Shown here: piece after piece, positions 2,039-18,299 of the stretch
Position numbering within the stretch: position 1 is the stretch's first letter
Layout: each line of letters begins with the position of its first letter
DNA from: a virus
Strand: one strand, 5' to 3'
IMG/VR virus record: IMGVR_UViG_3300020448_000043
Coordinates: 1-22,561 of that record
DNA length: 22,561 nucleotides
Notes under the pieces: model-generated
Told to the model about the DNA's origin: nothing
Seen by the model: the letters and a program-made list of their open reading frames with translations, nothing else
The model's database searches: none
Position numbers and translations under genes: made by a program

Positions 2039-2758
2039 CTAACTCCTTTTATTTGTAGCAAATGATATACTATATCTTTTGTTTTTAGTTAATGATGGTG
2101 CAACCATATGTTCCAACCATGCTGGAAACAAAACAAGTAATGACTCAGTTGGCCATATAGTAATATCATGTCCATAATATTCTGTAAATCCTTTTAATTC
2201 ACCATCTGGTTTTACTTGACTTTTAATTAATCTTGCTGGGTCATGCACAATTAGTTGACCACCAGTAGGATTTTCTGCTTCTCTTTCCCCACTATACCCT
2301 GCTTGTATACTTCTTTTTATATCATATTCATCTAGATTTTCTATTTCTTTTAAACCTTTTGGATAATATACTCCACTCCACAGTGTTCTTCCAGAACCAT
2401 GAAAATGAGGTTTTGAGAATCCACCAATATCAAAAACAACATTTCCCCATAAATGTTGCGTTCTAGTACTATTCGCTATTTCATAAGGAATTTTACTTTT
2501 TACCATCGCTTCAACACTAGCCTGATGGATAATATCTCTCAATTCACTGAAACTATCATAACGCTCTTCCATATTCGATTGTGTTTGTTTAGAACATGCG
2601 TTTTTTGAAAAAGTTTTATACTTTATATTTTTATCTTCTATTGCATCTTCTATATCATCAATAAGTCTTTTATTTAATTCTCTGTGTTTCTCACCATAAT
2701 GTAATATCGCAAATGGTGATGGAAAAACAGGGCGAAAAAGTAACTCACCAGCCATCAT
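2039..2758 (-). CDS. Putative 2OG-Fe(II) oxygenase (PF13759-like)
   Basis: A 239-aa protein with the signature of the 2OG-Fe(II) oxygenase family seen often in marine T4-like phages. KPHFHGSG (117-123) gives His118 and His120, followed by WSGVYYP (127-133) and, further on, the distal motif LFPAWLEHMVAP (His217) and KRYSISFATN (Arg228, candidate 2-oxoglutarate anchor). Such enzymes hydroxylate a substrate using Fe(II), O2 and 2-oxoglutarate; the substrate here is unknown. The first metal motif is HxH rather than the more usual HxD/E, which I believe is normal for this Pfam family. The gene lies between portal gp20 and gp67-like, a site that holds no enzyme in T4. Tandem ATGs occur at 2758 and 2755, with AAGGA five to eight bases upstream. 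Confidence 0.82.
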   Translation of the reverse strand: MMAGELLFRPVFPSPFAILHYGEKHRELNKRLIDDIEDAIEDKNIKYKTFSKNACSKQTQSNMEERYDSFSELRDIIHQASVEAMVKSKIPYEIANSTRTQHLWGNVVFDIGGFSKPHFHGSGRTLWSGVYYPKGLKEIENLDEYDIKRSIQAGYSGEREAENPTGGQLIVHDPARLIKSQVKPDGELKGFTEYYGHDITIWPTESLLVLFPAWLEHMVAPSLTKNKRYSISFATNKRS

Positions 2759-2770
2759 AATTATCCTTTA

Positions 2771-4270
2771 TTAAAAATTATCCTCTTCTTCACCTTCTTC
2801 TGGAGATTGTTCTTTTTCCAAATCCATTTGTTTTTGCATTTGACCAATTTCATCTTCAGTTTGATGTAGAATATTTTGTTTCACCCACTCTTTAGAGTAG
2901 TATGTTCCTATAAGTTCTGCCATTTCTCCAACTAGACCAACTCTATCTCTTATTATTTCACTATTTTTTATCTCTGTATAATAAGAATCTTGAGTAAAGT
3001 CTAATACAATATCTTCTTCTATCATTTCCCATTCATCTGGTGTAATTATTTCTTTTAGAATGAGTTGTTTTCTTAGTAAATCCATGAATAATAAACTGAA
3101 CTTATTTCTTAGTCTGGTTATAAATCTATTGAATTTATATTCATCTCTTGATATGTCTTGAGCTCTTCCTAACTGAATAGTGTTTTCTGGTTGTAGACGA
3201 GACATTGGAACATTTAGAGCTTTATATAATTTTTTCTGAAAATATAAAACGTCTTCCATCTCACCAAGATTTGAACCACCAGCAAGAGTATCTATTTCAG
3301 TTCCCCTTCCACCTTCTCTTCTAGGAAACCAATAATCTTCCAACATAGAAAGGTGTTTTCTATCATCTCTCACTTCTCCAGTTGCACCATCATATACAAT
3401 TTTGTTTTTATGTTTTACCATAATATCATTCATATACTGTTCTGCCTTTTGTTTCGGCAGATTACCAACATCAATATAAAAAACTCTTCTTTCTGGAGCT
3501 CTTGTCCATCTGTAAATAACTACAGAATCTTCTACAAGTTTTAGTTGATTTAAAGGTTTTATTACTTTATGGAGATGACCAATTGTATAATTTTTTTGAC
3601 CATCAGTCAAACCAGATGGAACATATGTAACTGAATCTACTGATATTGGAACACCTTGATTTACTTCTTCTGTTGCTTGTATTCCTTTGTCACTATAGAT
3701 ATAATATTCTTTAGTACTTTTTACTAGAGCAAGCCCAACGCCACCTTTTTGGTCTTTTTCTATTTCTTTTACTTTTCTAATTTTTCTTGGGTCAACAACT
3801 CTTAACTCTTTAATACCTTCTTTTTTATTATTTCCTAAAAGAATGTGGTAATAAATTCGGCCGTCAATATACCAATTTCTGAATATATCATATCCACGTT
3901 CTTTAAATTTTAATAATTTAAGAATATGAATAAATTCTTCATTAATTGCTTTTTTAACTGTTGCAGATTGTTGAACTTCTCCAGTGTCTATTTTAACTGG
4001 ATGGGATGGAGCGTCTGTGATAACAGACTCCGAAACAATATCGTCAATAGCGATTTCCACTTCTGGATGCATCGCCATTTCACGATATCTGTTGATTAAT
4101 TCTGAATCAGATTTTGCAGTGTTTTCTAGATTTAAATATTGTCCGAAAAACCCACTACTTTGAACAGTAATTGCCCCTTCATCTGTTGTACCTGTTGGGG
4201 GAACAAAAGATTTAGGGGCTTCTTTTTCTTTTTTGCTTCTGGTTATTTCAAAACCAAATAGTTTTGCCAT
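2771..4270 (-). CDS. 20: Portal vertex protein gp20
   Basis: Forms the dodecameric portal ring at one capsid vertex, through which DNA is packaged and ejected and on which the neck and tail dock. 499 aa (T4: 524). Family-typical segments are DGRIYYHILLG (136-146), WTRAPERRVFYIDVGNLP (255-272), YWFPRREGGRGTEIDTL, and LYKALNVPMSRLQ (348-360) followed by a conserved helical region. The acidic C-terminus ends EEGEEEDNF. A GTG at 4279 is in frame, but it would leave almost no room for a ribosome site and no 5' leader behind the late promoter at 4289-4296. ATG at 4270 has GAGAGG eight bases upstream, so I chose it. Followed at 12 bases by the oxygenase. Confidence 0.96.
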   Translation of the reverse strand: MAKLFGFEITRSKKEKEAPKSFVPPTGTTDEGAITVQSSGFFGQYLNLENTAKSDSELINRYREMAMHPEVEIAIDDIVSESVITDAPSHPVKIDTGEVQQSATVKKAINEEFIHILKLLKFKERGYDIFRNWYIDGRIYYHILLGNNKKEGIKELRVVDPRKIRKVKEIEKDQKGGVGLALVKSTKEYYIYSDKGIQATEEVNQGVPISVDSVTYVPSGLTDGQKNYTIGHLHKVIKPLNQLKLVEDSVVIYRWTRAPERRVFYIDVGNLPKQKAEQYMNDIMVKHKNKIVYDGATGEVRDDRKHLSMLEDYWFPRREGGRGTEIDTLAGGSNLGEMEDVLYFQKKLYKALNVPMSRLQPENTIQLGRAQDISRDEYKFNRFITRLRNKFSLLFMDLLRKQLILKEIITPDEWEMIEEDIVLDFTQDSYYTEIKNSEIIRDRVGLVGEMAELIGTYYSKEWVKQNILHQTEDEIGQMQKQMDLEKEQSPEEGEEEDNF

Positions 4271-4288
4271 GTCATTCACCTCTCATAA

Positions 4289-4296
4289 TATTTATA
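4289..4296 (-). promoter_or_regulatory. T4-type late promoter ahead of gp20
   Basis: Minus-strand TATAAATA, preceded by T, between gp19 and gp20. By the T4 rule (core at about -13 to -6) transcription would begin near 4283, giving a leader of roughly 13 bases that consists mostly of the GAGAGG ribosome site. This very short leader argues for the ATG at 4270 rather than GTG at 4279 as the gp20 start. Confidence 0.78.
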
Positions 4297-4314
4297 ACAC
4301 TTTTAAAAGGTGTT
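4296..4314 (-). terminator. Weak hairpin after gp19, abutting the gp20 promoter
   Basis: Starting right after the gp19 stop, the minus strand reads AACAC, CTTTTAAAA, GTGTT: a 5-bp inverted repeat that can be extended by three A-T pairs past one mismatch. It could end gp19 transcripts or only slow them. It lacks a run of T directly after the stem, and the following bases are the gp20 late promoter, so a terminator function is uncertain. Confidence 0.3.
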
Positions 4315-4836
4315 TTACGTTACTGAGGCGTCAGCGTGTGTCCAGTAATCCATCGCTAAAGTAACCGTAAATTCCTCTATCACATCATTGGTATCCCATG
4401 CAAGTTCGATGGCACCCAATTCAGTTGGGAATACACCAAGGAAGCTGTATGTTGCAATTAAACCACCATCTTTTCCGTAGTGGAAAACTTTACCGTCTGT
4501 CTTATATTCACTTGCACCAGTTGATTGAAGGTTTGAAGTGTGACCATTAATTCCTGCCATCCAAGCTTCGAAAGAATTTCTAATTGTGAAATTTTCGTCA
4601 TTAAGGACAGTCACAGTCCAAGGTTCGAATGTTCTGTTACCAGCATATCTAACCTGTCTACCAAAATATGGTACATCGATAGATGGGATAGTACTGCCGG
4701 GCAACTGAGCAGCTTTACACATAAATCTGAAATCCGCCATTCCGCCAGCTGGCGATGTTAACGTGGCTTCAAACAGATTTGGTCTAGCACCACCAAGTTT
4801 TAGTTCTGACTTGAAAGTATTTACATCAAATGCCAT
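4315..4836 (-). CDS. 19: Tail tube protein gp19
   Basis: Builds the inner tail tube inside the contractile sheath. 173 aa, close to T4 gp19 (163 aa). The N-terminus MAFDVNTFKSEL...GGARPNLFEATL, PYFGRQVRYAGNRTFEPWTVTVLNDENF (about 56-83) and the C-terminal IELAWDTNDVIEEFTVTLAMDYW are typical of T4-like tube proteins. It directly follows the sheath gene, as in T4. Strong AAGGAGAT four bases before ATG, and its own late promoter at 4865-4872, fit the high copy number needed for a tube subunit. Confidence 0.96.
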   Translation of the reverse strand: MAFDVNTFKSELKLGGARPNLFEATLTSPAGGMADFRFMCKAAQLPGSTIPSIDVPYFGRQVRYAGNRTFEPWTVTVLNDENFTIRNSFEAWMAGINGHTSNLQSTGASEYKTDGKVFHYGKDGGLIATYSFLGVFPTELGAIELAWDTNDVIEEFTVTLAMDYWTHADASVT

Positions 4837-4864
4837 TTTTATCTCCTTACGTTGTGTTTGTAAC

Positions 4865-4872
4865 TATTTATA
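4865..4872 (-). promoter_or_regulatory. T4-type late promoter ahead of gp19
   Basis: Minus-strand TATAAATA, preceded by T, in the 45-bp gap between gp18 and gp19. The motif ends 28 bases before the gp19 ATG, with AAGGAGAT between. Confidence 0.8.
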
Positions 4873-4881
4873 ATCATTTCT

Positions 4882-7269
4882 TTACGCTGACCCTACTATT
4901 TCTTCAAATTCTGTTCCAGTTCTAGTTGCAATGAAGTTCAACTGGATATAGTTGATAGAACGGGCGGGTTTAATGAATATATCACCTACAAACTCATTAG
5001 CATCAACAACAGCGGGAGTATTGTTTGTTTCATCACATACAACTAAGAAATCATAAATTCCTCTTCGACCTTTCACTTCTCTTAAGAAAGGTTCTACTAG
5101 TGCTGTAAATTGTGAACGTGTAAATGCATCGTTAAATTCAAACAGAGTAAATTTAGCAGCAGTCGCAATAGACTTCTCAAGTATGATAAACAGTCTACGA
5201 ACATTGATTCTATCAAACGCACTTGGTTTAGTAGTATGTGTTCTATCACCGTAAAGTACTGTACCTTGGCCTGGGAAGGTGACAACTGGATTAATCGCTT
5301 TTGGATAAATCGTATCTCTATGTACCTTTGTTTGATCCCATCCTAGTTTTACTGAGTTCTTAATAACACCACGGTTGAATCCAGCAGGAGAAAACCAAGG
5401 GTCTCTGTCATTGTCTGTTCGTGCCATTAGACCAGCAATATCACCATTTAAAGGCAACCATCTATATTTGTCGTTATATTTGTCATACTGATACTTGACA
5501 TTGGAATCTACAAATGCATAGTTACTTTTTTGAGTCATTGTTGAGTCAAAATAACTTACCACTGCACTTAAAGGATTACTTCCAAGAACTGTAGAAGTTG
5601 GTGGTGAAATCAGTGCAACAGCATCTTTTCTAGTTTCAACCATAGAGATTACACTAGTCTGTACTGTACTACCACTTGTAATATCACCCCATTCTCCTGT
5701 CATTACAAGAGTAACGTCTGTACTATCTGGGTCTGAGAAAAGGTCATATGCTAGAATGACTTGTCCAGCAGTTGGAGTCGCACCATCATTACCCCCACCA
5801 AAAGGTCTTGTTAGTGGGTCACTACCAATAGTTGCAAAAGAAGTTGCAACTTCGGCACCAGAAATTGTTGTTACTAAGTTAGTTCCCCAATTAGTACCAA
5901 CTGAAGGATGGTTGATTGACCAGATATATTCTGATTTTTCATTTATTACATCTCTATAATAAATGTTAGTTCCGTCTGCACGTTTTCCGTTTCCAGCTTT
6001 TGATAGGAACTCAAAAGTTTCAAGAACAGTTTCTACACCGTTACTTGGGTTAATTTCTGTTACTACAACATGAACTTCAGTACTTCTACCTGCTTCAGTA
6101 GCAGTGAGACCATCAGTTGATGCAACATTCGGAGCAGCACTAATTACATTTTGAAAGTTTGTGTTTAACGCTTCGAAAGCTGTTAGGTTGGTTGCAGAAT
6201 CTATTGTGTATACTTTGAGGTTATTTCCCCAAACTCCAGCACTTTTTGCAGCCCACTCTCCATTTACAGCGGCAGCTGCAGCTGCAATATCATTATCACC
6301 TTCTTCTTCGTGGGTTACGAGAACACCAGTGTAAGAAAAAGATGTTGTAGTTGCGTTCAAAATCTTAATTGTTATGTTTTCTGTGGGAGCAGTTGTCATT
6401 TCAACAACTTTAGTAGTTGGTGTTGAACCAGTTATAGTAAAACCTGTTGTTGCGTCATTGACTGTTACTGAATCAGATGCACCGACATCTTCACCAGTAA
6501 GGGCAAATTTCTTTCTTGCACCTAAACTTACTAGTACAGCAGCTCCATCGGCAGGAATTGACCCACCAGCGAAAACAAGACTTGTTCCAGTTACTGTGAA
6601 ACCAGATGTTACTGAAGAACCACCTACACTTACTGCAATATCTCCATTGAAATCTTCTCTAGGTAGAGTAAATGTATCAAGAGCAGTAAAATCTGCTGTA
6701 ACAGCAAGAGTATCTGCTGGAGCAGTTGCGAAAGTAACTGTATTAGTACCAGAAAGAGTAAAAGTGTTAGCTGCTTGTGCAACACCGTCAACTTTAATTG
6801 TTAATCCAGCTGCTCTATTCGTATGTGCAGTTGTCGGTAAAGTAAATGCAGTAGTAGTACCATCACCAGTACCCAATGCTTCGGCGGTTACAGCAGCATC
6901 TCCTGTACCTACACTTTGGTCTGTGACTGCGGCTGCAAATACACCAGTTATGGTTGATTCTACTGGTGTGTTTGTCTGTGGTATACCAGCGGTTGCGTTT
7001 AGAGCTCCTGTCCCTACAACACGAATCAATGAAAGGTTGTTTCCGTATTGGAGAAAGTTTGAAGCAGAAAAATATGACTTATAAGTATCTTCGTTGGGTT
7101 TACCGAAGAGTGAAGTCAATTCCTGTTCACTTGAAATTTTTGTTATTGTGTTAACTGGGCCCTGCGTAAATCTCCCTACTAAACCACCAACTGATGCTGA
7201 AACATTCGGGGTAGAAGTAGAAAAATCTATCTCTGACACATTAACGCCTGGACTTACTTGGAATGGCAT
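4882..7269 (-). CDS. 18: Tail sheath protein gp18, with a repeat-built insert
   Basis: Contractile sheath subunit that polymerises around the tail tube and contracts during injection. 795 aa against 659 in T4. The core is clear: N-terminal PFQVSPGVNVSEIDFS, FSASNFLQYGNNLSLIRVVG (67-86), and the C-terminal half with VKYQYDKYNDKYRWLPLNGDIAGLMARTDN, FSPAGFNRG, FDRINVRRLF, and CDETNNTPAVVDANEFVGDIFIKPARSINYI. Between about 105 and 310, where T4 has its surface-exposed domain I, lies a Thr/Ala/Gly-rich segment containing three related units of about 50 aa (listed separately). ATG has AAAGGAGAT six bases upstream and a late promoter at 7338-7345. Better codon balance than the AT-rich gp17 fits high expression. 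Confidence 0.96.
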   Translation of the reverse strand: MPFQVSPGVNVSEIDFSTSTPNVSASVGGLVGRFTQGPVNTITKISSEQELTSLFGKPNEDTYKSYFSASNFLQYGNNLSLIRVVGTGALNATAGIPQTNTPVESTITGVFAAAVTDQSVGTGDAAVTAEALGTGDGTTTAFTLPTTAHTNRAAGLTIKVDGVAQAANTFTLSGTNTVTFATAPADTLAVTADFTALDTFTLPREDFNGDIAVSVGGSSVTSGFTVTGTSLVFAGGSIPADGAAVLVSLGARKKFALTGEDVGASDSVTVNDATTGFTITGSTPTTKVVEMTTAPTENITIKILNATTTSFSYTGVLVTHEEEGDNDIAAAAAAVNGEWAAKSAGVWGNNLKVYTIDSATNLTAFEALNTNFQNVISAAPNVASTDGLTATEAGRSTEVHVVVTEINPSNGVETVLETFEFLSKAGNGKRADGTNIYYRDVINEKSEYIWSINHPSVGTNWGTNLVTTISGAEVATSFATIGSDPLTRPFGGGNDGATPTAGQVILAYDLFSDPDSTDVTLVMTGEWGDITSGSTVQTSVISMVETRKDAVALISPPTSTVLGSNPLSAVVSYFDSTMTQKSNYAFVDSNVKYQYDKYNDKYRWLPLNGDIAGLMARTDNDRDPWFSPAGFNRGVIKNSVKLGWDQTKVHRDTIYPKAINPVVTFPGQGTVLYGDRTHTTKPSAFDRINVRRLFIILEKSIATAAKFTLFEFNDAFTRSQFTALVEPFLREVKGRRGIYDFLVVCDETNNTPAVVDANEFVGDIFIKPARSINYIQLNFIATRTGTEFEEIVGSA
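6358..6861 (-). repeat. Three degenerate ~50-aa beta repeats within gp18
   Basis: Residues 137-192, 199-248 and 253-304 of gp18 follow one pattern: an aromatic start (AFTLP, FTLPRED, KFALTGED), then hydrophobic-alternating V/I-x-V, a G-F/T-T-V/L-S/T-G-T turn (FTLSGTNTVTF, FTVTGTSLVF, FTITGSTPTTKVVEM), then a P-A/T plus V/I-x-V ending. The DNA is diverged between copies, so these are old protein repeats. Likely immunoglobulin-like beta domains on the sheath exterior; this fold is inferred from pattern only. Confidence 0.65.
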
Positions 7270-11548: not shown

Positions 11549-12523
11549 TTATCCCACCATGAAATCAACAGGCAACTCATAAGATGAAGACATTTCCTCT
11601 TCTAACCTTGTTATCTCTTCGTTTGCCTCGTCTATAAGTCTTTGACCATTAAATTCTACACCGCCAGGCATTTGTATTCCAGAGTACTTAGATAAATTTT
11701 CTCCCCACTGTCTTTTTATTAATGCAGTTGCATATCTTTTTAACCATCTATCGTTCCAAACATCTTGATAAACTGTTGGGTCAAGATATCGATAACATTC
11801 TATGATTAAATATTCTCCAATATTTAATTCTTCTGCCCAATTGATATCCAAATGCAATTGATTTTGATGACGATTAAATCTTATTGGGACTCTTCCTGTA
11901 ATCATATCGTTGACTAATTGCATATGAGATTGAGTAACTTCATATGTTAACATTTCTGCACTTTGAAGATTGTAAACATCATTCAAATGCATTTGATAAC
12001 GAATATCAAAAAAACTTTTTACGTTTTGGTCTCTTTCATATAGAGGAATAACTCTTTTTATTCCTGTAATCAAGTCACTAGTAGTAAGATATCCGTTTTC
12101 TATATCTCCTTTATCTACAGAACTAATAACACCAGTTTTACCAGATGTTCCCCCTGTTATAGTTTCTGCTGCTTGAAAAGGTGGAGTTGAATTGGTCATC
12201 ATCTCATAAACAATATCAGAAGTTGTTCCATCTAATTTTGTCGAATGTACTATTGCAGTTGCACCACTTGTACCACCAGTGATTGTTTCACCATCAGTAA
12301 ATTCAGTGCCAACAGTAGTTGTAAGATTTAAGGTTGAACCAGTTATTTCGTGTTTGAGAAACACTTTTTCGGTTGCATCGTAATGATAATCACGATAATA
12401 TTCAAATGCATCATCTACCCTGTCTTCTACTTGGGTATCATCGATATTAATTTGAATTACTGGTTTACCAAGTTTTCGTAAACAATACTCTTTGAACTCT
12501 GTTTTAGATGTGATTCTCGCCAT
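11549..12523 (-). CDS. 13: Neck protein gp13, with a GGTSG double-repeat insert
   Basis: Head-completion neck protein that binds under the portal with gp14. 324 aa (T4: 309). The core matches T4-like gp13: KTEFKEYCLRKLGKPVIQINIDDTQVEDRVDDAFEYYRDYHYDATEKVFLKHEIT (7-61), then DIENGYLTTSDLITGIKRVIPLYE (140-163) and a long C-terminal part containing EYLIIECYRYLDP and NDRWLKRYATALIKRQWGENLSKY. Residues 62-139 split this core and hold two copies of ETITGGTSG. ATG has AGGAG eight bases upstream inside an inverted repeat, directly behind a late promoter. It heads the gp13-14-15-16-nucleotidase-17 unit. Confidence 0.95.
   Translation of the reverse strand: MARITSKTEFKEYCLRKLGKPVIQINIDDTQVEDRVDDAFEYYRDYHYDATEKVFLKHEITGSTLNLTTTVGTEFTDGETITGGTSGATAIVHSTKLDGTTSDIVYEMMTNSTPPFQAAETITGGTSGKTGVISSVDKGDIENGYLTTSDLITGIKRVIPLYERDQNVKSFFDIRYQMHLNDVYNLQSAEMLTYEVTQSHMQLVNDMITGRVPIRFNRHQNQLHLDINWAEELNIGEYLIIECYRYLDPTVYQDVWNDRWLKRYATALIKRQWGENLSKYSGIQMPGGVEFNGQRLIDEANEEITRLEEEMSSSYELPVDFMVG
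12104..12340 (-). repeat. Two-copy GETITGGTSG repeat insert in gp13
   Basis: Residues 62-140 of gp13 carry EFTDGETITGGTSGATAIVHS and FQAAETITGGTSGKTGVISS, with the shared nine residues ETITGGTSG 41 residues apart. Codons for the identical residues differ between copies (for example ATC ACT GGT GGT against ATA ACA GGG GGA), so the match is kept at the protein level. Flanking gp13 sequence reads continuously if the segment is removed. Confidence 0.8.
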
Positions 12524-12564: not shown

Positions 12565-13059
12565 TTATGTCCAGTTGCCTATGTTTTCCCAAGCAGTACC
12601 ATTCCAAAAATTTAAACTTTTTTCTGATACTGCATATGCAAGATCTCCATTTGTATTTCCAGATGCAGGCAATCCAGCCTCATTTATGTATTCAGTCGCA
12701 GTTATTCCATCTACATCACCCCAAGTCATGTTCGTTCCATCCGTAGTCAACCATTTATTTGCATTGCCAGATTGAGTTGGAAGTTCTGCTCCAGAAGAAG
12801 TATTGGGTGTTACTGCATCTATAACTTTTGCAACTGCACCAGCAACTTTAGTTAAATCTTCAACACTTGCTCCACTTATTAATGTTTGAGCCCTAGAATC
12901 TATCAGTGTTTCTAAAGTTTGATTTTCTGATTGTTTTATTTGATTTGCTATTCTTGCAAGTTTAAGTAAAGATAATGCATCAGCGCTCGGAATAGAACTT
13001 TCTAAATCAGTTGTAAGTGCAGACCTTGATGTATCTAATCTTGAATCTAAGTTTGACAT
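12565..13059 (-). CDS. Fibre-type protein, third of three tandem paralogues
   Basis: A 164-aa protein of the same family as the next two genes upstream. Residues 1-85 are a helical region (LDSRLDTSRSAL..LTKVAGAVAKVIDAV). Then comes LPTQSGNANKWLTTDGTNMTW (93-113), the linker motif found in many phage fibre proteins, and a C-terminal LNFWNGTAWENIGNW (149-163), a common short tip. A TTG in frame at 13074 extends the frame, but ATG at 13059 has GGAGAG seven bases upstream and overlaps the previous stop by one base (TAATG), so I chose it. It sits immediately upstream of gp13, where T4 has the whisker gene wac; a neck or tail fibre role is inferred. Confidence 0.72.
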   Translation of the reverse strand: MSNLDSRLDTSRSALTTDLESSIPSADALSLLKLARIANQIKQSENQTLETLIDSRAQTLISGASVEDLTKVAGAVAKVIDAVTPNTSSGAELPTQSGNANKWLTTDGTNMTWGDVDGITATEYINEAGLPASGNTNGDLAYAVSEKSLNFWNGTAWENIGNWT

Positions 13060-13517
13060 TACATTTCTCTCCAATTCCCAGATTCTAGAACATATAATTT
13101 GTTTATTGATGTTACATATGCAATATTATAAGATGCACTATTCGACAAATCAACCACATTAGTTACTGTTTTGATAGAAACATTCTGCCAAGAATCATTT
13201 GTTCCATCTGTTACTAAAAATTTACCAGAATTTCCCGATTGACTTGGAATAAACTCACCAGTTAAATTACTTGAAGTTGTTGACAACAACTCTTTAACCG
13301 CCCTACTAAGATAATCTAAATCTTCTGCTGTTGCAGAACTTGAAAGAGAACTAACTCTTGATGCAACTGCTTGTTCTAAACTAGTATCTTCTTCTTCTCC
13401 AATATTTTTTCCAGTTTTTGCATTTTTGGCTAGTTCTTTTGCATCAGAACTGGCAACTAATGTTGTAATTCTACTTAATATTGCAGCTGTTGATGTTTGT
13501 AAATTTGAATCTGCCAT
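13059..13517 (-). CDS. Fibre-type protein, second of three tandem paralogues
   Basis: A 152-aa paralogue of its neighbours. The N-terminal MADSNLQTSTAAILSRITTLVASSDAKELA lines up with MPDSNFTTAISDLLSRATSLVPTATARELY of the 342-aa protein. EQAVASRVSSLSSSATAEDLDYLSRAVKELL (48-78) matches the equivalent region there, and IPSQSGNSGKFLVTDGTNDSW (90-110) is the linker motif. The C-terminus is short (LYVLESGNWREM), again the small tip form. Only a weak ribosome site (AGAAG) is visible. Function unknown beyond a likely fibre or neck appendage. Confidence 0.7.
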   Translation of the reverse strand: MADSNLQTSTAAILSRITTLVASSDAKELAKNAKTGKNIGEEEDTSLEQAVASRVSSLSSSATAEDLDYLSRAVKELLSTTSSNLTGEFIPSQSGNSGKFLVTDGTNDSWQNVSIKTVTNVVDLSNSASYNIAYVTSINKLYVLESGNWREM

Positions 13518-13527
13518 TTTTATTCTT

Positions 13528-14556
13528 CTATGCTAGTGAAAATCCAGTTGGTATTGTATATTGAGGGCCTTGAGTGTGACTGATTATTTCTATTCGATAA
13601 TTCTCTCCACCATTTTGTTGTGTAGTAAAAGCTGGACGCATATTAGTAGTTCCATTCATGTTAATAGAACTTCCAGCTTGTGTGGCTGGATTATGATTAG
13701 GGCCCCATGACCCATTTGTTCCTAACCAAACTTTTCCAGCAGTTGTATCATAAGCAACCATTCTTATGTCATTTATATTCGCATTACCATTGAAAAAATT
13801 ACTACCATAGTTAGTAGTTCCATCAAAAAGTTTCCCATCTCTGTGAAGATAAATACTCTGGTCATATCCAGTTCCCACTTGATTATATCTTGCTTCACTA
13901 GCACCTTTCGGGAAATTCCCAGAGGCAATTCCAATCAAAGAATAATTTATTGTTCCCGAAATATATTTAACTTCGAAATAACCTTTACCTACCAAACCAT
14001 TTTCTTCTGTATGAGCTATCTGATTTGATGTAGGAGTTATATCTGCTTGATTGTCAGCAGTATAAGTAGAATTAATTACAGATTTAGATGTATCAAACGT
14101 GAAAGTTGTTTGGGGGGTGCCAATTGTTCTCCAACTTCCATCATAATACATTTTAATATCAGAACCAGAAATTATAACCTCTCCATTTGTTGTTCCTGTT
14201 TCTGATGTTTTTAGTGATGGGTGAGCATTATCCCATAAAGTAGAAAAACCATTCGTTTTTAATGTTTTCCCAGAATTTCCTGTGTCGCTCGGAAGATAAA
14301 CACCAGAAACTATAGTATTTTCTAACATATTCGCAATAGATTTGCCAAGGAACTCTTTTTCAGTTAAAGTTGCAGAAGATAATAGGGAATTTATTCTAGA
14401 ATTAAGAGCATTTTCAAATGTTGCATCATCAGTCTTTTTAATTCTTTTGACGCAATTTGTTATTTGATAAAGTTCTCTTGCCGTAGCAGTAGGTACTAAA
14501 CTTGTTGCTCTACTTAGTAGATCTGAAATTGCAGTTGTAAAATTTGAATCTGGCAT
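13528..14556 (-). CDS. Fibre-type protein with C-terminal SPRY-like domain, first of three paralogues
   Basis: A 342-aa protein. Residues 1-110 are the shared paralogue module ending in LPSDTGNSGKTLKTNG; 115-147 is a small linker domain (GEVIISGSDIKMYYDGSWRTIG). Residues about 150-342 look like a SPRY/concanavalin-type beta sandwich: GKGYFEVKYISG, YSLIGIASG, SIYLHRDGKLFDG, DIRMVAYDTTAGKVWLGTNGSW, MRPAFTTQQNG, and the ending YTIPTGFSLA, a form I associate with phage SPRY-like tips. Such domains bind proteins or glycans, so a receptor or surface-binding tip is plausible. AGGATGG lies just before the ATG. The domain call is from pattern reading and needs a profile search. Confidence 0.72.
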   Translation of the reverse strand: MPDSNFTTAISDLLSRATSLVPTATARELYQITNCVKRIKKTDDATFENALNSRINSLLSSATLTEKEFLGKSIANMLENTIVSGVYLPSDTGNSGKTLKTNGFSTLWDNAHPSLKTSETGTTNGEVIISGSDIKMYYDGSWRTIGTPQTTFTFDTSKSVINSTYTADNQADITPTSNQIAHTEENGLVGKGYFEVKYISGTINYSLIGIASGNFPKGASEARYNQVGTGYDQSIYLHRDGKLFDGTTNYGSNFFNGNANINDIRMVAYDTTAGKVWLGTNGSWGPNHNPATQAGSSINMNGTTNMRPAFTTQQNGGENYRIEIISHTQGPQYTIPTGFSLA

Positions 14557-15602: not shown

Positions 15603-18299
15603 TTATATATTCGTCATTGACATGACTGAAACTCTGATATGTGAAGCTTGAGTTAAAGTTATTGTTAAAGTATTTGCATCCGTTTCCTCAACAGGAACAA
15701 CGTCATTTTTATATTTTCCATCACTATCAAGAACCATAACTTGAAATAAAAGAAAATTGGAATTTAAATTATGTGCAATAGTATGTACAAGAGCAGAGGC
15801 GCTAGATTGATATGTAAATCTTAAATTATTTACTGAAGTTCTTACAGAATTATCTCCAGCAATTCTTGCAGAACTTTCAGCTTCTGAATTTGATTCTACG
15901 TCTAATATTAAAGATTCTAAATCATCATAGTTTGTTTTAATTTGAGTGTCGAGTAATCCTATTGCACTTGTAATGCTAGTAGAAGAATTAATGTAATTTG
16001 TTCCAGAAACAGAGTATGTTCCTGTTGTACTTAATCCAACTGAAGATTCAATAGTATCAATTAAATCAACAACGGACTTTACTTGTGTATCTAAAAGATT
16101 ATCTGCGCCTTGGAGTGTTGTTGCACCAGTAATGTAGTTTGAACTATTATTTGCAGTATAAGAACCATCAGAACCTAAACCAGCACCAGTTTGTGTTGCG
16201 TCCAATTCTGTCTGAAGATTAGATATATTAGTTTCATTAGTGGTTATCTTATTGGATAAAGTATCGCTTAATTTTATACCAGAAGAACTTGCAGAAATAC
16301 TAGTACCATCTAATTTTACGGAAAGAGTATTACCATCTTTTTGTAATCCATTTCCTTCTAGTATTTGACCAGCACCAGAAAATTGTTGGAATGTTATTGA
16401 AGTAGTACCAACTGTAACAGGGTCATCTGATATAACTACAAAACCATTATTTCCGTTAATTGTACCTTCTTCAATAAATGTAAATGCACCAGCAGTTACT
16501 TCTGTGTCCGTATCAAAATCTTCTGCTCTTGTTGGAGCACCGCTTGAGTTAACTGTATAGATACCATTTTCTGAACCAGTAGTTTGGTTTTTAAGAAGTA
16601 TTCTATCACCAGTAGAAAGAGTAACACCGTCAATTGTTTGTCCATTTGCAAATGCAGATGAAAGTGTTCCATTTGTAGTTGTTGCAACTCTTACAGAGTT
16701 TTTGACATCTAGACCGTTTGCAACACTATCGACATACGCCTTTGTTGATGCATCAGTCGATACAGTTGGCGTTCCTAAGTTGGTAATTTTTTGACCACCC
16801 ATATTAATGGCAGAAGTCATTGTTCCACCAGATAAGGATAGATAGTCGTTTAAATCGCTGTAGTTAGCTAATTCTACCCAGTTACCAGCATGAGCAAAGT
16901 AACCTTTACCAGTTGCATGAACATGTGCAAACATACCATGATAAGTAGACGCAGAAGGTAAATCTGATAGTGCTGAATATACGTTTGCAAAAAGAACTTT
17001 GTTACCATTACCGTCAATGTCACCAGACATTGTTCCACCAGCAAGTGGAAGTTTAGTTAAAATTGCATCAGCATTTGTTTTTATTTGTGTATCTAGTTTA
17101 TTATCTGCATCTTTTAAACTGGTCGCAGTTGTAATATAATTAGATGAACCGTTTGTAACATATAACCCACTTACATTTAACCCAGCACTTGCTTCTATTG
17201 TGTTAATTTGAGATGTATTTGCAGTGACATCAGACTGTAGGTTTGTGATATCTGTAGTAATAGCATTATCAGCATTTGTTCTTGCACTTGTTTCAACTGC
17301 AATTGCATCTGCATTTGTTTTTATTTGTGCATCAAGAAGTGTATCAGCATTTTTTAAAGTAGTTGCACCAGCAATATAATTAGAACTTCCATCTGCAAGA
17401 TAGGCACCACTACCAGTGAATCCAGAAGAATTTTGTGTTGTGTCTAATTCTAATGAAACATTGTTTATTGCAGTATCTAGTTTATTGTCTGCGTCTTTCA
17501 GATTTGATGCAGTTGTTAAATAAACTGTTGTACTATCAGCATTATAAGTACCATTGGTTTCAAGACCAGCACCAAGTTCTATTGCATCTATTTCTTGTTG
17601 GACAGTTGCTGGTAAAGCAGATGTCTTAAGTATTCCAGCCATTGCAGCTGGATGATTTGTACAAATATAATATACTTGGTCTGGTGCATCATGAGGAACT
17701 TTAAAGAATAACTTACCAGAAGCTTTTCCTTGAGCGGCCGAACCAGTTGAAGTTGTTCCATTATCTGCAACATGACTTAAACCATCATTATAATAATTTG
17801 AAGAGAAATTTGAAGTTACTGGAGCAGATGTAATTACTATAGGATGTGTTCCCAAATTCAAATCAAATCTATATGTAACTCCAGGCGTTAATTTGAGTGT
17901 AGGGTTTGAATCACCATCTATAATAAAATTTGAAGCACTATTGTTAGTGACATCAAATATTATTGTCGCTGGATGATTTGCACGATTGACCGCTTCAGCA
18001 TCGATGTTTGTTTGAAGAGTCGAATCATTAGAAGCTCTGGTAGACGCTTCATTAGTAATTGCAGTATTAAGAGTTGCTACTTCTGTATTTAATTCTTCAA
18101 GACTAGCAGCTTGTCGAATTATAATATTTCCACTTCCATCCAAGGAAGAGAACTTAAATGCTTTTGTTGTTTCGTTATACCATAAGCGACCAGCTGATAT
18201 CGGGGTAGGGTCAGCCGTTACTTTCTCTACTCTGAGGTTTTCAATTTCAGAGCCATCAGCAAGCTTGATACCATGAAATTTTACATATTTATTGGCCAT
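15603..18299 (-). CDS. Large multidomain tail fibre protein with cupredoxin-like domain
   Basis: An 898-aa modular fibre protein. Order: N-terminal attachment-like region MANKYVKFHGIKLADGSEIENLRVEKV with GRLWYNETTKAFKF (1-50); short coiled-coil stretch (65-106); cupredoxin-like domain (112-226); three GxYxxxxSSNYI repeats (244-413); two LxGGTMxxxI fibre segments (418-524, including GGQKITNLGTPTVSTDASTKAYVDS); a beta domain VRVATTTNGTL..NGIYTVNSSG..FQQF (535-640); two more repeats (707-793); coiled coil; and a C-terminal beta domain (827-893) also found in the 140-aa protein. A role as a trimeric host-binding or baseplate-linked fibre is likely. GGAG lies eleven bases before ATG, with a late promoter at 18339-18346. 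No intramolecular chaperone domain is seen. Confidence 0.87.
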   Translation of the reverse strand: MANKYVKFHGIKLADGSEIENLRVEKVTADPTPISAGRLWYNETTKAFKFSSLDGSGNIIIRQAASLEELNTEVATLNTAITNEASTRASNDSTLQTNIDAEAVNRANHPATIIFDVTNNSASNFIIDGDSNPTLKLTPGVTYRFDLNLGTHPIVITSAPVTSNFSSNYYNDGLSHVADNGTTSTGSAAQGKASGKLFFKVPHDAPDQVYYICTNHPAAMAGILKTSALPATVQQEIDAIELGAGLETNGTYNADSTTVYLTTASNLKDADNKLDTAINNVSLELDTTQNSSGFTGSGAYLADGSSNYIAGATTLKNADTLLDAQIKTNADAIAVETSARTNADNAITTDITNLQSDVTANTSQINTIEASAGLNVSGLYVTNGSSNYITTATSLKDADNKLDTQIKTNADAILTKLPLAGGTMSGDIDGNGNKVLFANVYSALSDLPSASTYHGMFAHVHATGKGYFAHAGNWVELANYSDLNDYLSLSGGTMTSAINMGGQKITNLGTPTVSTDASTKAYVDSVANGLDVKNSVRVATTTNGTLSSAFANGQTIDGVTLSTGDRILLKNQTTGSENGIYTVNSSGAPTRAEDFDTDTEVTAGAFTFIEEGTINGNNGFVVISDDPVTVGTTSITFQQFSGAGQILEGNGLQKDGNTLSVKLDGTSISASSSGIKLSDTLSNKITTNETNISNLQTELDATQTGAGLGSDGSYTANNSSNYITGATTLQGADNLLDTQVKSVVDLIDTIESSVGLSTTGTYSVSGTNYINSSTSITSAIGLLDTQIKTNYDDLESLILDVESNSEAESSARIAGDNSVRTSVNNLRFTYQSSASALVHTIAHNLNSNFLLFQVMVLDSDGKYKNDVVPVEETDANTLTITLTQASHIRVSVMSMTNI
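15921..16181 (-). repeat. Fibre repeats 4 and 5
   Basis: Residues 707-793 of the 898-aa protein hold GLGSDGSYTANNSSNYITGATTLQGADNLLDTQV and GLSTTGTYSVSGTNYINSSTSITSAIGLLDTQIKTN. They match repeats 1-3 upstream and are separated from them by about 290 residues of other domains. Confidence 0.8.
17061..17570 (-). repeat. Fibre repeats 1 to 3
   Basis: Residues 244-413 of the 898-aa protein carry three units with the pattern AGLxxxGxYxxxxSSNYIxxATxLKDADxxLDxQIKTNADAI, each about 35-42 aa of beta turn plus helix. Parts are still near-identical in DNA: a 19-base stretch GCATTTGTTTTTATTTGTG (plus-strand sense) occurs at about 17074 and again at about 17319. This makes recombination between copies possible. 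Confidence 0.85.
17622..17966 (-). other. Cupredoxin-like domain with full type-1 copper ligand set
   Basis: Residues 112-226 of the 898-aa fibre: TIIFDVTNNSASNFIIDG, NPTLKLTPGVTYRFDLNLGTHPIVITS, then LFFKVPHDAPDQVYYICTNHPAAMAGIL. The layout (strand, HP motif, Gly-rich middle, VP..AP..YYxC..H...M..I) is that of plastocyanin-like domains, and candidate ligands His152, Cys213, His216 and Met220 are all present. Copper binding is inferred, not shown. Confidence 0.7.

What the first reader, a model, noticed from the sequence alone, without database searches (positions are those of the whole stretch)
17622..17966. Complete type-1 copper site predicted inside a phage tail fibre
Residues 112-226 of the 898-aa fibre have cupredoxin layout and keep all four candidate ligands (His152, Cys213, His216, Met220; C-x2-H-x3-M spacing falls between amicyanin and plastocyanin). 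Cupredoxin-like folds used only as scaffolds would not be expected to keep Cys, both His and Met together. A metal site on a fibre could stabilise a trimer, act as a redox switch, or bind an envelope copper or iron protein of the host. The domain also sits near the N-terminus, between the attachment region and the shaft, not at the tip.
Basis: partly seen in the sequence, partly recalled or inferred. Interest (0 to 1): 0.72.

Follow-up and report, generated by a model that had tools for sequence, protein, structure and literature searches.

The report
Copper-protein domain in phage tail fibre
A tail-fibre protein of an uncultured, probably aquatic, phage contains a small domain with the fold and all four metal-binding residues of blue copper proteins, and the same domain recurs, with those residues almost always kept, in tail and baseplate proteins of many cyanophages and in some ocean microbes, so these virus particles may carry copper.

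Summary
Residues 112-226 of the 898-aa fibre hold His152, Cys213, His216 and Met220; Cys213 is the protein's only cysteine. AlphaFold2 gives a confident model (pLDDT 91), and its PDB matches at E<=1e-3 are copper proteins or other cupredoxin-fold proteins. A family profile aligns its four ligand columns to the copper ligands of plastocyanin.

The domain is not unique to this phage. It is a widespread, apparently unnamed family: C-terminus of cyanophage gp9 (baseplate-fibre connector), gp10-type baseplate proteins, fibres of cyanopodoviruses, Pelagibacter and Methylophilales phages, and lipoproteins of SAR86 and Marine Group II archaea. Of 158 non-redundant domains, 146 keep all four ligands; eleven have lost Cys and the second His together (ten of them both His), one has lost only Met. 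The usual loop is C-x2-H-x2-M (amicyanin spacing); the window's extra residue is a minor variant.

Best reading: a genuine type-1-like copper site on a plug-in tail module, most likely a metal-locked stabilising or docking domain. Copper binding and function are undemonstrated; redox, metal-exchange and other-metal roles stay open. I found no description in the open-access papers searched.

The parts
15603..18299 (-). tail-fibre protein, 898 aa, carrying the domain
   Evidence: ORF and translation; tail PHROG matches; lies among tail, neck and terminase genes
17622..17966 (-). cupredoxin domain, residues 112-226
   Evidence: AlphaFold2 pLDDT 90.9, pTM 0.83; Foldseek PDB matches are blue copper proteins; profile matches
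17844..17846 (-). His152 codon, predicted first His ligand
   Evidence: 97% conserved column; family column aligns to the plastocyanin His ligand
17661..17663 (-). Cys213 codon, predicted Cys ligand; only Cys of the protein
   Evidence: 96% conserved; sole Cys
17652..17654 (-). His216 codon, predicted second His ligand
   Evidence: 96% conserved
17640..17642 (-). Met220 codon, predicted axial Met ligand
   Evidence: 97% conserved
17967..18104 (-). segment before the domain (about residues 66-111), coiled-coil-like by eye, partly shared with cyanophage gp9
   Evidence: PHROG 677 match runs from residue 77 to 224; coiled-coil character is my reading of the sequence, not computed

Best explanation
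The stretch is a cupredoxin domain with a complete mononuclear type-1-like copper site (His152, Cys213, His216, axial Met220), in the proximal part of a tail fibre. It belongs to a large, apparently unnamed domain family that aquatic phages plug into tail and baseplate proteins and that some ocean bacteria and archaea carry on lipoproteins. Most likely mechanism: each subunit binds one copper ion, during assembly or from the medium after lysis; the metal ties the ligand loops together and gives a rigid surface domain that stabilises a fibre or baseplate joint or offers a docking patch. Shown: homology, predicted fold, ligand conservation and loss as a set. Inferred: that the metal is copper, that the site is filled in the virion, the trimeric state, and the stabilising or docking role.
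For: Predicted fold pLDDT 90.9, with all 29 PDB matches at E<=1e-3 being copper proteins or cupredoxin-fold proteins. Family profile finds Cu-nitrite reductase, plastocyanins and pseudoazurin by sequence alone, with ligand columns aligned. Four ligands in 146 of 158 non-redundant domains; Cys and both His lost together in ten others, about two loss events on a tree. In the same cyanophages, gp9 and the first gp10-type copy keep the ligands while the second gp10-type copy lost the set. Several unrelated tail and baseplate families carry the domain.
Against: No metal was measured. PDB TM-scores are only about 0.4-0.55, so the fold is a divergent cupredoxin. No Pfam copper model passes its cutoff. 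A purely stabilising role does not readily explain the near-invariant Met, which in known sites mainly tunes potential and Cu(I) binding (general knowledge). Copper is kept scarce in cytoplasm, so loading is uncertain.
Confidence: 0.6

Rival explanations
1. The copper is used chemically: a redox or metal-exchange element that reacts with, or exchanges copper with, a host envelope protein during adsorption, or that lets the phage use a copper-uptake receptor (a copper analogue of the iron 'Ferrojan horse' idea).
For: Near-invariant Met as well as Cys and both His suits a tuned Cu(I)/Cu(II) site. Cellular relatives are lipoproteins, hence probably surface-exposed. Iron in phage fibres has been proposed for host contact (PMC11705849).
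Against: No redox partner or receptor is evident. Residues between and beside the ligands vary in the small family alignment, which fits one shared partner poorly. The domain occurs in phages of unrelated hosts and in proteins at different tail sites.
Confidence: 0.15
2. The site holds another metal (Zn, Fe or mixed) in the virion; the cupredoxin ligands are used as a generic metal staple.
For: Isolated type-1 sites are known to take up Zn in expression hosts (general knowledge); iron is reported in fibres of other phages (PMC11705849).
Against: The Cys/His2/Met set with the cupredoxin fold is characteristic of copper (general knowledge).
Confidence: 0.15
3. The domain is a metal-free scaffold; the residues are conserved for folding only.
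For: Ligand-less copies exist and still model as a confident beta sandwich (pLDDT 86.7), so the fold does not need the residues.
Against: For that same reason folding does not explain why 146 of 158 keep all four and why loss is of the set. The one ligand-less copy modelled no longer matches copper proteins at E<=1e-3.
Confidence: 0.06
4. The single Cys is a reactive thiol that cross-links subunits or host proteins.
For: One exposed Cys per subunit could cross-link.
Against: The Cys is kept or lost together with both His; the window protein has no other Cys.
Confidence: 0.03

Closest known systems
Mononuclear blue copper proteins (plastocyanin PF00127, amicyanin, pseudoazurin, auracyanin, rusticyanin, AcoP)
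   Same: Predicted cupredoxin fold; His...Cys-x2-His-xn-Met ligands; the family's usual C-x2-H-x2-M loop is the amicyanin spacing
   Different: Module of a tail fibre or baseplate protein, not a soluble electron carrier; sequence only distantly related and below Pfam cutoffs; the first ligand is usually followed by Pro (88%); copper not shown
Cyanophage gp9, baseplate wedge tail fiber connector (PHROG 677)
   Same: Its C-terminal ~100 aa is the same domain with all four ligands; the window matches profile positions 268-406
   Different: The window protein shares only the C-terminal third of gp9 and continues into a long fibre; phage T4 gp9 resembles cyanophage gp9 only near the N-terminus
At5g54830-like domain (PF25489)
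   Same: Best Pfam profile: 23 of 58 members match at E down to 5e-6
   Different: Window score 21.9 is below the curated cutoff of 27; function of that domain not examined here
Iron-binding HxH tail fibres (T4 gp37 tip; Alteromonas phage R22Y; 'Ferrojan horse' idea)
   Same: A metal in a tail fibre, with a possible role in host contact and ocean metal budgets (PMC11705849)
   Different: Different metal, fold and ligands: octahedral iron from HxH motifs there, a predicted Cys/His2/Met site inside each subunit here

Membership tests
Cupredoxin superfamily (fold) | Greek-key beta sandwich matching solved cupredoxins | tested here: met
   AlphaFold2 pLDDT 90.9, pTM 0.83; Foldseek E 2e-5 to 1e-3 to copper proteins and cupredoxin-fold proteins, TM about 0.4-0.55
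Type-1 (blue) copper proteins | Two His, one Cys, usually one axial Met, in the order H...C-x2..4-H-x2..4-M | tested here: met
   H152, C213, H216, M220; family columns align to plastocyanin ligands
Type-1 (blue) copper proteins | Ligands conserved together across homologues | tested here: met
   146 of 158 complete; ten lost Cys and both His, one kept only the first His, one lost only Met
Type-1 (blue) copper proteins | Ligand side chains converge on one point in the structure | not testable with these tools
   Model coordinates are not released
Type-1 (blue) copper proteins | Binds copper, ~600 nm absorbance, small EPR hyperfine coupling | not testable with these tools
   Needs purified protein
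Pfam Copper-bind PF00127 | Score above curated cutoff | tested here: not met
   No hit for the window; 10 of 58 members match weakly, best E 1e-4
Pfam At5g54830-like PF25489 | Score above curated cutoff | tested here: not met
   21.9 bits against 27
Cyanophage gp9 (PHROG 677), whole protein | Match over the gp9 N-terminal region as well as the C-terminal domain | tested here: not met
   Only profile positions 268-406 of 412 match
HxH iron-binding fibres | Several HxH motifs in the fibre | tested here: inconclusive
   One H-x-H (459/461) in the window protein; iron binding not testable

The most novel reading that the evidence does not exclude
Tailed phages of surface waters carry functional blue-copper domains on baseplate and fibres, and the copper takes part in host contact or in triggering infection (redox or copper-dependent docking), making virions a mobile copper pool.
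Probability: 0.15. Interest if true: 0.88.

Novelty: new variant of a known kind. Interest (0 to 1): 0.62.

Why it matters
If the prediction holds, a copper site of the type used in photosynthetic electron transfer is a standard part of the tail or baseplate of many marine phages. Virions would then be copper carriers, extending to a second metal the idea so far discussed for iron. It also gives a defined four-residue site for asking whether metals govern adsorption in cyanophages, with a ligand-less copy of the same domain in the same phages as a natural negative control.

Tried and rejected
A single-sequence PDB search gave only chance hits (interferon gamma); profiles were needed. A viral-contig scan with the window domain alone found no relative, so its relatives are distant (at most 46% identity in isolates). 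Considered and rejected: chance occurrence (conservation); retrieval bias towards the Cys motif (117 loci lack the Cys-motif search peptide and so came through other patterns; only 3, cut at contig ends, lack the C-H-M ligands); disulfide or reactive thiol (one Cys only); uniqueness of the N-terminal placement. NCBIfam gave nothing and Pfam nothing above cutoff for the window. Paper searches pairing cupredoxin, plastocyanin or copper with phage, cyanophage, tail fibre or baseplate found no description of this domain; only titles, abstracts and counts were inspected for most of those hits. Subscription papers, preprints and automatic InterPro/SUPERFAMILY annotation could not be searched.

Full report
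WHAT IS THERE. The window is a 22.6-kb virus record from IMG/VR of a T4-like phage. Its terminase is at most 59% identical to that of isolates, the closest being Synechococcus phages; neck, tail-sheath-stabiliser and terminase genes follow the fibre genes. The ORF 15603-18299 on the minus strand encodes 898 aa. Cys213 is the only cysteine of the protein.

FAMILY. tblastn with the domain finds 244 phage records at E<=0.01, nearly all cyanophages, most often the C-terminus of gp9, 'baseplate wedge tail fiber connector'. PHROG 677, that gp9 family, matches residues 77-224 at E 9e-18. Four scans of IMG/VR with relatives each found 268-397 related stretches, of which the best 80 were kept. The domain also occurs in fibres of Pelagibacter and Methylophilales phages and in 44 loci of bacterial and archaeal assemblies. 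Some of those may be viral contigs, but several are cellular: SAR86 proteins with a lipoprotein-like N-terminus, one on a 471-kb contig, and Marine Group II archaeal proteins with a lipobox. Copies sit N-terminal, internally or C-terminal, up to three per ORF. It is a plug-in module, not a feature of one fibre.

METAL SITE. In 107 non-redundant phage domains the four ligand positions are among the six most conserved columns (96-97%, with Tyr211 and Phe145). With cellular and divergent copies added, 146 of 158 keep all four: 142 with C-x2-H-x2-M (amicyanin spacing), 3 with H-x3-M including the window, and 1 with C-x4-H-x2-M. Ten lack Cys and both His, one keeps only the first His, one has lost only Met. 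On a tree the loss of Cys takes about two events. The clearest control is inside single cyanophages: gp9 and, in nearly all, the first gp10-type copy keep all four ligands while the second gp10-type copy has lost the set. Retrieval bias is small: 117 loci lack the Cys-motif search peptide, so they came through other patterns, and only three of them, cut at contig ends, lack the ligands.

FOLD. AlphaFold2 on the window domain with 57 relatives from viral contigs gives pLDDT 90.9 and pTM 0.83. Foldseek's 29 PDB matches at E<=1e-3 are copper proteins or, in the case of E. coli SufI, a multicopper-oxidase-like cupredoxin protein: AcoP, three-domain Cu-nitrite reductase, rusticyanin, auracyanin, amicyanin, pseudoazurin, plastocyanin, laccases. 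TM-scores are moderate (about 0.4-0.55), so this is a divergent cupredoxin. A profile of the family finds Cu-nitrite reductase, plastocyanins and pseudoazurin first in the PDB by sequence alone (E 7e-4 to 8e-3), and its plastocyanin alignment places the ligand columns on the copper ligands. One ligand-less copy (L229) modelled in the same way (pLDDT 86.7) has no PDB match at E<=1e-3; its weak matches mix immunoglobulins and cupredoxins. Model coordinates could not be read, so side-chain distances were not measured.

MECHANISM. Shown: predicted fold, homology, ligands kept or lost as a set. Inferred: that the metal is copper (the ligand set and fold favour it), and that it is loaded in the virion. 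For function I favour a metal-locked stabilising or docking domain on fibre and baseplate: it occurs in many unrelated tail proteins, in phages of different hosts, and the residues beside the ligands vary, which fits one conserved redox partner poorly. Against a purely structural role stands the near-invariant Met. Redox or metal-exchange roles therefore remain possible (about 0.15).

KNOWN OR NEW. It looks like a type-1 copper protein: fold and ligand membership are met, copper is untested. By their cutoffs it is not a member of Pfam Copper-bind or At5g54830-like, and the PHROG and GenBank names seen do not mention copper. In the open-access papers searched I found no description; automatic superfamily annotation elsewhere cannot be excluded. 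The nearest published idea is iron in HxH fibres (PMC11705849). I rate it a new variant of a known kind: a known fold and site in a new and widespread virion setting.

Noticed in passing
window 16890-16940 (-), fibre residues 454-470: A cluster of His (454, 459, 461, 470) with one H-x-H, the motif proposed to bind iron in other phage fibres.
   Followed up: no
L103, L388-L408, second domain copy of the gp10-type protein (about residues 560-690; 732-841 in L407): A second cupredoxin-like copy that has lost Cys and both His, beside a first copy that nearly always keeps all ligands.
   Followed up: partly
L397/L401, first copy of the gp10-type protein (residues 370-454): Only domain seen to keep His, Cys and His but lose the axial Met (CKNHGSYH).
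   Followed up: no
L355, L373 (SAR86); L356-L358, L363, L364, L368 (Marine Group II or assigned otherwise): Small cellular proteins with a lipoprotein-like N-terminus and a C-terminal copy of the domain with all ligands; their function is unknown.
   Followed up: partly
BFVD hits: Predicted 'beta-sandwich proteins' of pithovirus- and marseillevirus-like metagenomic viruses match the model, so the fold may also occur in giant viruses.
   Followed up: no
L002 (P-SSM2), 2575-5730: In P-SSM2 a gene annotated piuC lies three genes after the domain-bearing fibre gene; the window has an ORF (2039-2758) that reads by eye like a 2-oxoglutarate/iron oxygenase, not searched.
   Followed up: no
window 11549-12523 (-), about residues 60-150: The neck protein (head-tail adaptor Ad2) carries an insert with a twice-repeated 'ETITGGTSG' motif that matches tail-fibre PHROGs 693 and 9851.
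   Followed up: no
window 13059-14556 and 12565-13074 (-): Three consecutive small proteins share similar N-terminal halves by eye and have no PHROG match; probably duplicated fibre-associated proteins.
   Followed up: no
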